Assembly (NCBI RefSeq): GCF_900129555.1
Contig: NZ_FQWC01000001.1
Span: forward strand, 620,001-684,000
Source: Flavobacterium defluvii
GTDB lineage: Bacteria; Bacteroidota; Bacteroidia; Flavobacteriales; Flavobacteriaceae
Direction of reading: 5' to 3'
Length of the DNA stretch: 64,000 bases
Both the position numbers and the translations under genes were made by a program. Below, piece after piece: positions 44,039-50,439 of the stretch. The notes under the pieces were generated by a model. The model saw only the letters and a list, made by a program, of their open reading frames with translations, was not told the origin of the DNA and searched no databases. Numbering within the stretch: the stretch's first letter is position 1; each line of letters starts with the position of its first letter.

Positions 44039-44275
44039 TTAATTCTCAACCTCAAAATAAGGGTTCAAAATCTCGGCTAACTCATTCAGCCAGAAATAAC
44101 CTTGTTCAACTGATTTTGGATCGATTTGCAGGGTTTCGCATTCTCGCATTAGAGACATAGCAAGAAGATAATTTACTTTTCGAATTGCTTTTGCGAAACT
44201 TTTAGGATCTGTCGCCTGATTGAAAAATTCATTTAACCGCAATTCGGTTTCTTTCGAAAGGGTGTTTACACTCAT
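44039..44275 (-). CDS. 78-aa protein, paralogue of the protein at 23493-23732
   Basis: A small helical protein without recognised domain. It shares with the 23.5-kb copy the pattern LS.ETE.RL..FFN.......FAKAIR..NY..A..(L/V)MR.....EQG.(F/Y)WLNELAEIL(D/N)PYFE(I/V)E. Here no XRE regulator is adjacent; instead the upstream gap holds the 14-bp-repeat-flanked element. The conserved C-terminal WLNELAEIL helix is the likely functional face. Confidence 0.75.
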   Translation of the reverse strand: MSVNTLSKETELRLNEFFNQATDPKSFAKAIRKVNYLLAMSLMRECETLQIDPKSVEQGYFWLNELAEILNPYFEVEN

Positions 44276-44618: not shown

Positions 44619-44933
44619 ATGAAAATTCAAATCAATACCGATAAAAACATCGAAGGACACCAAAGATTAGAAAATTATTTCTCTGAAGAATTAGAAAAAG
44701 GCTTAGCGCGTTTTGAAGATAAAATCACAAGAATCGAAGTACATTTTGGAGATGAAAACGGCGAGAAATTCAGCCTAAATGATAAAAAATGTGTTCTTGA
44801 AGTTCGTACCGCAAAATTACAGCCAATCACTGTAACAGAACACGCTGAAACTCTTGAAAAAGCTTTTAACGGTGCTTTGAGTAAAGCTAAAAAAACACTT
44901 ACTACAACTTTCGAAAAATTGAAAGCACACTAA
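44619..44933 (+). CDS. Ribosome hibernation-promoting factor/RaiA family protein
   Basis: A 104-residue short HPF/YfiA-type protein: MKIQINTDKNIEGHQRLENYFSEELEKGLARFEDKITRIEVHFGDENG, then LEVRTAKLQPITVTEHAETLEKAFNGALSKAKKTL. It lacks the C-terminal dimerisation domain of long HPF. Family members bind the 30S subunit and silence ribosomes in stationary phase. Confidence 0.82.
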   Translation: MKIQINTDKNIEGHQRLENYFSEELEKGLARFEDKITRIEVHFGDENGEKFSLNDKKCVLEVRTAKLQPITVTEHAETLEKAFNGALSKAKKTLTTTFEKLKAH

Positions 44934-44956
44934 AAATATATAGATTAAGTTTTTTT

Positions 44957-44999
44957 AAACCATATAAGTTATATAAGATAATTTATATGGTTTAATTTT
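44957..44999. terminator. Terminator-like hairpin (ACCATATAA family)
   Basis: AAACCATATAA / TTATATGGTTT with a 15-base loop, followed by AATTTTTTT. Serves the HPF gene (+) and perhaps the opposing lipoprotein gene (-). The same words form the repeat at 50295-50439. Confidence 0.7.
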
Positions 45000-45000
45000 T

Positions 45001-45684
45001 TTATGATTTTGGCAGAGGTGCTCCAACAGCGATATCACAGCGATGTCCCGGTTGTCCGTGTGGCGGATTCATTCCTTCTGCAACTGTTTTGTTGGCATCT
45101 GTACTTAATAAAGCAGGAACCGGATTTGATGAAGGCGCAGGAACGGTAACATTCTGTGTCATTGTTCCGCTTTGTGGTGTTGAAGCTGTTGTTGTAGTTT
45201 TGGCAACCGGAGAATTTAAAGGCGCTCCAACCGGAATATCACATCTGTGTCCCGGCTGTCCGTGCGACGGATTCATTCCTTTTCCAACTTTTACCGGCGC
45301 AGCAACTGTAGTGGTAACCACATTTTTTTGATTCGGATTTACTTGTACTGTTTGTCCCGGTTGCGCCTGAACTTGCTGTACTTGTTGAACCTGCTGTGTT
45401 GGTGCAGAATTCAAAGGTGCTCCAACAGCAATATCGCAGCGGTGTCCCGGTTGTCCGTGAGCCGGATTTAATCCCTTATTATCACTTAAAACTGTATTTG
45501 GGTTTGCTGCTGAAGTCTGAGTCTGCTGCTGCACTATTGAAGGTTTTTTTGTAGTATCTTTTGCCAGTCCAAGTCTTACCAATTCAGATGTTGCTGTGGT
45601 TTCTTGCGGCTCTAATTCTTTTTTGCAGGAAACAAAAAATAACGAGGTTATAATGAGTGAACTTAGTAGGATTTTTGGATTCAT
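45001..45684 (-). CDS. Lipoprotein with three HGQPGHRCD repeats
   Basis: A 227-residue lipoprotein: lipobox FFVSC (Cys20) and a Gln/Pro/Thr/Val-rich low-complexity body. The 20-residue unit G[LM]NP[ASP]HGQPGHRCDI[AP]VGAPL occurs three times (about 74-93, 136-155 and 205-224), joined by flexible linkers. Each unit has two His and one Cys, a pattern that could bind metal. The family is unknown to me; the repeat may be a surface ligand- or metal-binding motif. Confidence 0.75.
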   Translation of the reverse strand: MNPKILLSSLIITSLFFVSCKKELEPQETTATSELVRLGLAKDTTKKPSIVQQQTQTSAANPNTVLSDNKGLNPAHGQPGHRCDIAVGAPLNSAPTQQVQQVQQVQAQPGQTVQVNPNQKNVVTTTVAAPVKVGKGMNPSHGQPGHRCDIPVGAPLNSPVAKTTTTASTPQSGTMTQNVTVPAPSSNPVPALLSTDANKTVAEGMNPPHGQPGHRCDIAVGAPLPKS

Positions 45685-45792
45685 AATTTGGGATATTTAA
45701 AAAGCTCTCAAATATACTCGTTTTTTGAGATTAAACCATAATAAGTTATTTAAGATAATTTAAGTTTCGGGTCTTGCAATACTGTAAAGTTT

Positions 45793-45916: not shown

Positions 45917-46405
45917 ATGAAAAAAACACTTTTACTGTTATTATTCGTCGCTTCTTTTGCAAATGCTCAAACCGACAAAGACAAAATCAATCAAACGCTT
46001 GATGCTTGGCACAAAGCCGCTGCCGAAGTAAAATTTGATGCTTATTTTTCTGCTTTGGCAGATGATGCTATTTATATTGGAACTGACGCAACCGAAAACT
46101 GGACTAAAAAAGAATTTTCAGTTTGGGCAAAACCATTTTTCGACAAAGGAACAACCTGGAATTTTAAAGCCTTAGAACGTAATATCTTTTTTGACAAATC
46201 TGGAAAAACAGCCTGGTTTGATGAATTGCTGGATACGCAAATGAAAATCTGCCGCGGTTCAGGAGTTTTGGTAAAAGTTGGTAAAGAATGGAAAATTCAG
46301 CATTATGTTTTATCAATGACCATTCCGAATGATGAGGTTGATGCAGTAACAAAGCTAAAAGCCCCAATTGAAGACGCTTTGATTGCGAAGCTTCAAAAAA
46401 AATAA
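45917..46405 (+). CDS. Secreted NTF2-like (SnoaL-type) protein
   Basis: A 162-residue exported protein: signal peptide 1-17 (FANAQ), then an NTF2-like alpha-beta cone fold recognised from INQTLDAWHKAAAEVKFDAYFSALADDAIYIGTDATENWTKKEF and GKTAWFDELLDTQMK...GVLVKVGKEWKIQHYVLS. Catalytic or binding function is unknown. Confidence 0.83.
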   Translation: MKKTLLLLLFVASFANAQTDKDKINQTLDAWHKAAAEVKFDAYFSALADDAIYIGTDATENWTKKEFSVWAKPFFDKGTTWNFKALERNIFFDKSGKTAWFDELLDTQMKICRGSGVLVKVGKEWKIQHYVLSMTIPNDEVDAVTKLKAPIEDALIAKLQKK

Positions 46406-50294: not shown

Positions 50295-50439
50295 ACCATA
50301 TAAGTTATATAAGTTCATTTAGCTTTGATTCACTTTGTCATTTAGTCTCGCAAAGTCGCGAAGTCGCAAAGCTTTTTTTATTTTCTTTGCGAGAGATCTA
50401 TACGTAATCCTTAATATGAACTTATATAACTTATATGGT
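50295..50439. repeat. Element bounded by 24-bp perfect inverted repeats
   Basis: The arm at 50295-50318 (accatataagttatataag then ttcat) has its exact complement at 50416-50439. The centre holds cgcaaagtcgcgaagtcgca and ctttgcgagagat. MITE-like shape, but no target-site duplication is evident. Related words are at 44957-44993 and 45733. Confidence 0.8.

What the first reader, a model, noticed from the sequence alone, without database searches (positions are those of the whole stretch)
45001..45684. Lipoprotein with a triplicated HGQPGHRCD motif
Seen: three copies of a 20-residue unit NP.HGQPGHRCDI.VGAPL in an otherwise low-complexity lipoprotein; each has two His and one Cys, strictly conserved while linkers vary. 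Inferred: three metal- or ligand-binding beads on a flexible surface string; I know no described function.
Basis: partly seen in the sequence, partly recalled or inferred. Interest (0 to 1): 0.55.

Follow-up and report, generated by a model that had tools for sequence, protein, structure and literature searches.

The report
Lipoprotein with repeated metal-ligand-like peptide units
A floppy lipoprotein found in many bacteria of the phylum Bacteroidota carries, as a rule, two or three copies of one short peptide with fixed histidines and a cysteine, and in one family its gene sits beside a probable copper-uptake receptor, so it may be an undescribed metal-catching tether.

Summary
Relatives in many Bacteroidota share one architecture: usually a lipoprotein signal, low-complexity linkers, 2-4 units (one in three genomes). 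Scored with the His, His and Cys columns masked, 389 of 389 unit-like stretches in 155 distinct proteins still carry all three. No Pfam, NCBIfam, PDB, plasmid or phage match passed; AlphaFold predicts disorder, units included.

New lead: in all eight same-order, other-family genomes listed in a 395-genome phylum sample, the gene lies under 1 kb from a TonB-dependent receptor of a kind with heavy-metal-associated (HMA) domains, in two gene orders over three genera. One other genome has a CopZ-like HMA gene beside it. Against: in the window's genome the related receptor is about 125 kb away, and within the genus the two genes do not co-vary. Best reading: a tethered, unfolded metal-capture (probably copper) array, working like PhtD or SilE but in neither family. 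Metal binding, metal identity and surface exposure are inferred.

The parts
45001..45684 (-). 227-aa predicted lipoprotein with three units
45625..45684 (-). signal peptide and lipobox ...FVSC, Cys20 as anchor (prediction by eye), followed by KKELE
45412..45468 (-). unit 1 NPAHGQPGHRCDIAVGAPL
45217..45273 (-). unit 2 NPSHGQPGHRCDIPVGAPL
45013..45069 (-). unit 3 NPPHGQPGHRCDIAVGAPL, three residues from the C-terminus
45917..46405 (+). divergent neighbour, SnoaL_3-domain protein (PF13474, E 3.1e-31); in this position in 36 loci of the neighbour clustering, no known link to the function
44619..44933 (+). convergent neighbour, ribosome hibernation factor-like (PF02482, E 1.7e-9); downstream in 33 loci

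Best explanation
The protein is a lipid-anchored, intrinsically unfolded extracytoplasmic tether whose 19-residue units are short metal-binding peptides. In each unit His4, His9 and Cys11 act as ligands; with one Cys and two His a unit leaves at least one coordination place open, so ions could be shared between units or handed on. It collects a soft or borderline metal, most likely copper, near the outer membrane and passes it to an outer-membrane uptake receptor, in Weeksellaceae-type genomes the HMA-domain TonB-dependent receptor encoded next to it. Shown: the units, their invariance, the architecture, the gene linkage in one family. Inferred: that the units bind metal, that it is copper, hand-over, and which face of the outer membrane it sits on.
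For: (1) With the three columns masked, H/H/C is present in 389 of 389 unit-like stretches; the one nearest miss swaps Cys for His, another common metal ligand. (2) 136 of 155 proteins have no His outside the units, so His is kept for the units. (3) 151 of 155 distinct proteins have two or more units (78 with 3, 70 with 2, 3 with 4); of the four with one, L182 is cut short by the start chosen and its genome has two matches. (4) In 31 loci of the Chryseobacterium type the gene is followed on the same strand by a small Cys-rich protein, and in 30 of these 31 next by a TonB receptor (the locus of the other ends first); an OmpR-type response regulator is upstream. L009's receptor has HMA (PF00403, E 3.9e-11) and TonB barrel (PF00593) domains, and its HMA part matches copper chaperone models and a copper-ATPase structure. 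(5) In G281 and G331 the order is different, Cys-rich, (HMA protein in G331), HMA-TonB receptor, then the unit protein, on one strand; a link kept through rearrangement is more than shared ancestry of one operon. In all eight listed same-order genomes outside the window's family the two genes are under 1 kb apart (coordinates). (6) In G383, of another family, a CopZ-like HMA gene ends about 20 bp from the unit gene, convergent. (7) Some members add His-rich N-termini (L018, L119). (8) AlphaFold2 with 30 sequences: mean pLDDT 42.9, no residue >=70, one helix (signal peptide).
Against: No binding data. The HMA link was found only in the one family plus G383: HMA-like ORFs occur in 34 of 181 loci scanned, 30 of them Chryseobacterium-type, the other four L160, L161 and L126/L159, the last two one genome (many loci carry only 1.5 kb of flank). 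In the window's own genus the related receptor (50% identity over the barrel, no HMA domain in its ORF; a separate HMA gene follows) lies about 125 kb away, and presence does not co-vary: receptor in 18 of 19 genomes with the unit gene and 4 of 5 without. Over the phylum sample it is 27 of 32 against 66 of 363, which relatedness may explain. G080, G122, G296, G339 and G383 have the unit gene and no receptor at E<=1e-100. Flanks elsewhere are varied and not metal-related. Three genomes of one genus have a single unit far from the C-terminus. Conservation extends to N1, P2, G5, V15, G16 and L19, more than bare metal ligation needs.
Confidence: 0.45

Rival explanations
1. The units are docking peptides: a folded partner in the outer membrane or on the cell wall recognises the whole NPxHGxPGHxCDIxVGxPL sequence, and copies raise avidity. 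Cys and His serve in the peptide-partner contact, not as metal ligands.
For: Nearly all 19 positions are conserved, including N, P, G, V, G and L, and the last unit ends within three residues of the C-terminus in 133 of 155 proteins, as for end-recognised tags. The peptide is predicted to be unfolded.
Against: No partner gene travels with the family across lineages. H/H/C are the positions that never change, and L025 shows a Cys-to-His swap.
Confidence: 0.22
2. Metal binding for protection rather than uptake, or zinc rather than copper: a sponge like SilE that buffers excess metal outside the cell.
For: Disorder and repeated ligands as in SilE (abstract of PMC5008109); a Cys-rich protein and a two-component-type regulator stand in the operon.
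Against: The linked transporter is a TonB-dependent receptor, which is an importer class (established knowledge); no efflux pump or P-type ATPase was recognised in the stretches listed around the linked loci (names by eye). L165 has an RND-type gene nearby, but of the drug/HAE1 look rather than a metal pump (recalled).
Confidence: 0.18
3. Heme or thiol-redox role: His/Cys bind heme, or the single Cys per unit forms disulfides between units or with partners.
For: One Cys per unit and almost always two or more units; in L164 and L038 a gene whose start resembles an alternative complex III cytochrome c (recalled) stands two genes away.
Against: No CxxC or CxxCH in the unit; two invariant His are not needed for disulfides; 3-unit proteins, the most frequent class, have an odd number of unit Cys.
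Confidence: 0.08

Closest known systems
PhtD / polyhistidine triad proteins of streptococci with AdcAII
   Same: Short repeated His-motif units joined by flexible linkers on a surface protein, in an operon with the receptor part of a metal uptake system; zinc is passed to the receptor (abstract and section list of PMC3842936).
   Different: HxxHxH motif in three-stranded beta units, zinc, Gram-positive host; here H-x4-H-x-C in a predicted unfolded peptide with a Cys, a lipid anchor, and receptor linkage in only one family of hosts.
SilE (silver-binding periplasmic sponge)
   Same: Disordered when free, with repeated His-containing metal motifs (abstract of PMC5008109).
   Different: His/Met motifs, silver resistance, sil operon with efflux genes; no lipid anchor known to me (recalled); no sequence match here.
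OprC/CrtA-type and HMA-domain TonB-dependent copper receptors
   Same: The linked receptor belongs to the TonB-dependent class and has HMA domains; OprC takes up copper (listing and start of abstract of PMC8610252); a Bacteroidota genome paper also proposes a TonB-dependent copper receptor (passages of PMC11213822).
   Different: The unit protein is not a receptor, and I found no paper that names a repeat lipoprotein partner (listings; passages of two papers).

Membership tests
Polyhistidine triad (Pht) family | HxxHxH motif | tested here: not met
   Unit motif is H-x4-H-x-C; no Pfam family passed its cut-off
Polyhistidine triad (Pht) family | operon with a metal-uptake receptor | tested here: inconclusive
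   Present in Chryseobacterium-type loci and in G281 and G331; absent in the window's genome
SilE/PcoE-type metal sponge | sequence relationship or His/Met repeats | tested here: not met
   No NCBIfam or Pfam match; units hold His/Cys, no Met
SilE/PcoE-type metal sponge | disordered without metal | tested here: inconclusive
   AlphaFold2 mean pLDDT 42.9; a low score suggests but does not prove disorder
SilE/PcoE-type metal sponge | binds metal ions | not testable with these tools
   needs a bench assay
Surface-exposed Bacteroidota lipoprotein | export signal C-X-K-(D/E)2-X behind the anchor Cys (Capnocytophaga), SDDFE in F. johnsoniae (PMC5080379 passages) | tested here: inconclusive
   Window has C-KKELE: K at +3, E at +4, L at +5. 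32 of 155 relatives fit C-X-K-(D/E)2, 38 have KK[DE]L[DE], 81 other, 4 no lipobox
Any curated protein family or solved structure | score above the curated cut-off, or a significant PDB match | tested here: not met
   Best Pfam E 0.37, best NCBIfam E 0.12, both below cut-off; PDB best E 1 and 0.98

The most novel reading that the evidence does not exclude
A new kind of outer-membrane metal capture: unfolded metallopeptide units, H-x4-H-x-C within an almost fixed 19-residue frame, tethered by a lipid and working two or more together to hold copper(I), which is then handed to an HMA-armed TonB receptor. Where the receptor gene is elsewhere in the genome, the tether would serve it in trans, or serve other cuproprotein supply.
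Probability: 0.22. Interest if true: 0.72.

Novelty: new variant of a known kind. Interest (0 to 1): 0.5.

Why it matters
How Gram-negative bacteria take up copper across the outer membrane is known in few cases. If the units bind copper, this gives a compact, testable capture motif found in many lineages of a phylum that is important in soil, fish, mouth and gut, and a tag by which to recognise copper-handling genes there. It would also be a short metal-binding peptide with unusually strict conservation, of possible use in protein design.

Tried and rejected
Curated domain: rejected, nothing above cut-off. Mobile or viral origin: no match in plasmids or phages, none for the exact DNA pattern in viral contigs. 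Solved relative: only chance matches, such as nine residues of a zinc finger and HGxxGH in SmbP. A second copy in the own genome: none at E<=10. Phylogenetic co-occurrence with the receptor as proof: rejected, because within the genus there is no association. 'Never a single unit': rejected by L173, L175 and L179. Chance hits: G242 and G288 (E 0.005, 0.009, partial) were dropped from the count of 34, leaving 32. Promoter and terminator scans: 5 and 2 sites against 2.8 and 1.2 expected, not informative. No second structure job and no fold search were run, since the model has no confident fold.

Full report
What is there. The finding's coordinates hold one ORF on the minus strand, 227 residues. 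It starts with a lipoprotein-type signal (...FFVSC-KKELEP) and has three copies of a 19-residue unit, NPxHGQPGHRCDIxVGAPL, separated by 46- and 49-residue linkers rich in Thr, Gln, Pro, Ala and Val; the third ends three residues before the C-terminus. Unit pairs differ at 1-2 residues but at 4-6 synonymous codons, so the likeness of the units is old and held by selection rather than a fresh duplication (inference). Shuffled versions of the protein do not approach the self-match.

Relatives. A profile of 34 units hit 34 of 395 phylum genomes at E<=0.01, of which I keep 32 (two partial hits dropped), and 36 of 395 class genomes at E<=1e-5; the two samples overlap. In the window's own genus 19 of the 24 sampled genomes have it. 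The own genome has one gene.

Architecture. After removing two duplicates and adding the window's own protein there are 155 distinct proteins: 78 with three units, 70 with two, three with four, four with one. One of the four (L182) is cut short by the start chosen and its genome has two matches; the other three (L173, L175, L179) are one genus with a single unit followed by a tail of more than 50 residues. The last unit ends within three residues of the C-terminus in 133 of 155. A lipobox is seen in 151 of 155; L085 and L149 look membrane-anchored and L126 simply secreted (by eye). 136 of 155 have no His outside the units.

Invariance test. My first tally (301 units in 119 loci) could not test His and Cys, because the pattern demanded them. 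Scoring with columns 4, 9 and 11 masked, 389 stretches reach a score of 5 and all 389 have H, H and C; nothing else reaches 5. The nearest miss (L025, score 3.9) has both His and a His in place of the Cys, followed by unrelated sequence; one H/H/C stretch (L038) has lost the second half. Each locus was picked for having at least one canonical unit, so the free evidence is in the remaining units of each protein.

Structure. AlphaFold2 with 30 aligned sequences gave mean pLDDT 42.9 and pTM 0.12, with one helix, the signal peptide. The units are not predicted to fold alone. This fits a linear peptide motif, whether for metal or for a partner.

Neighbours. In the window the gene stands between a divergent SnoaL_3 protein and a convergent ribosome hibernation-like factor, an arrangement seen in many Flavobacterium loci (36 and 33 loci) and not informative. 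In 31 Chryseobacterium/Kaistella-type loci the gene is followed on the same strand by a small Cys-rich protein and, where the stretch is long enough (30 of 31), by a TonB-dependent receptor; an OmpR-type response regulator and, before it, a protein that looks like a sensor kinase (by eye) are upstream. In L009 the receptor has HMA and TonB-barrel domains by Pfam; its HMA part resembles CopZ and copper-ATPase domains. In two further genera, G281 and G331, the same kinds of genes stand together in another order, with the unit gene last. All eight genomes listed as same order but not same family have both genes under 1 kb apart by the coordinates. In G383 a CopZ-like HMA gene is convergent and about 20 bp off.

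Against the link. Elsewhere I found no HMA gene nearby: 34 of 181 loci have an HMA-like ORF, all in the cases just named (many loci hold only about 1.5 kb of flank on each side). The window's genome has a related set, a Cys-rich protein, a TonB receptor 50% identical over the barrel and an HMA protein, about 125 kb away. Receptor presence is 27 of 32 in genomes with the unit gene and 66 of 363 without, but 18 of 19 against 4 of 5 within the genus, so the phylum figure may be relatedness. Five genomes have the unit gene without such a receptor at E<=1e-100.

Mechanism. The most likely reading is a tethered metal scavenger: His4, His9 and Cys11 hold a soft or borderline ion, units share ions or pass them on, and an outer-membrane receptor takes them. 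Copper is preferred because of the HMA partner, but HMA domains also bind other soft metals. The closest workings are PhtD with AdcAII, where a repeated His-motif surface protein hands zinc to a receptor of the same operon (abstract of PMC3842936), and SilE, a disordered His/Met sponge (abstract of PMC5008109). It is a member of neither: the motif differs and no sequence match was found. Surface exposure is open: the published signal is C-X-K-(D/E)2-X in Capnocytophaga and SDDFE in F. johnsoniae (passages of PMC5080379); the window's KKELE fits only in part, while 32 of 155 relatives fit the former.

Literature. No held paper contains any of six motif strings. Listings on copper TonB receptors and Bacteroidota and passages of two papers show no repeat lipoprotein of this kind; this is a limited library and I did not read those papers whole.

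Verdict. A real, undescribed and strictly conserved repeat lipoprotein family of Bacteroidota; metal capture is the leading but unproved function.

Noticed in passing
window 44955-44995; 44964-44985 and 45741-45762; 50296-50316 and 50418-50438: A palindromic intergenic repeat (core ACCATATAAGTTATATAAG) between the lipoprotein and the convergent gene folds well as RNA (-13.3 kcal/mol, z -6.4); a 22-nt part recurs upstream of the gene. The own genome has 25 copies with up to one mismatch against 0 for the reversed control, several as inverted pairs.
   Followed up: partly
L169:7060-10013 (own genome C14, about 539-542 kb): Copper-type cluster in the own genome: small Cys-rich protein, TonB receptor and separate HMA protein; the receptor ORF lacks the fused HMA domains of the Chryseobacterium type.
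   Followed up: partly
L170:731-6551 (own genome C18, about 671-677 kb): Second metal-looking cluster: an RND pump of CusA look, HMA-containing TonB-receptor N-terminal fragment, Cys-rich protein, next to transposase-like genes (names by eye).
   Followed up: no
L025:unit-like stretch at residue 45 of the protein: A half unit NPAHGEPGHTHD in which His replaces the invariant Cys.
   Followed up: partly
window 44039-44275 (-): 78-aa ORF with no significant Pfam or NCBIfam match, with relatives downstream of the lipoprotein in 17 loci.
   Followed up: no
L018, L080, L091, L171: An approximately 1135-aa envelope-type protein of unknown name is near the unit gene in several genera (7 loci in the clustering).
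   Followed up: no
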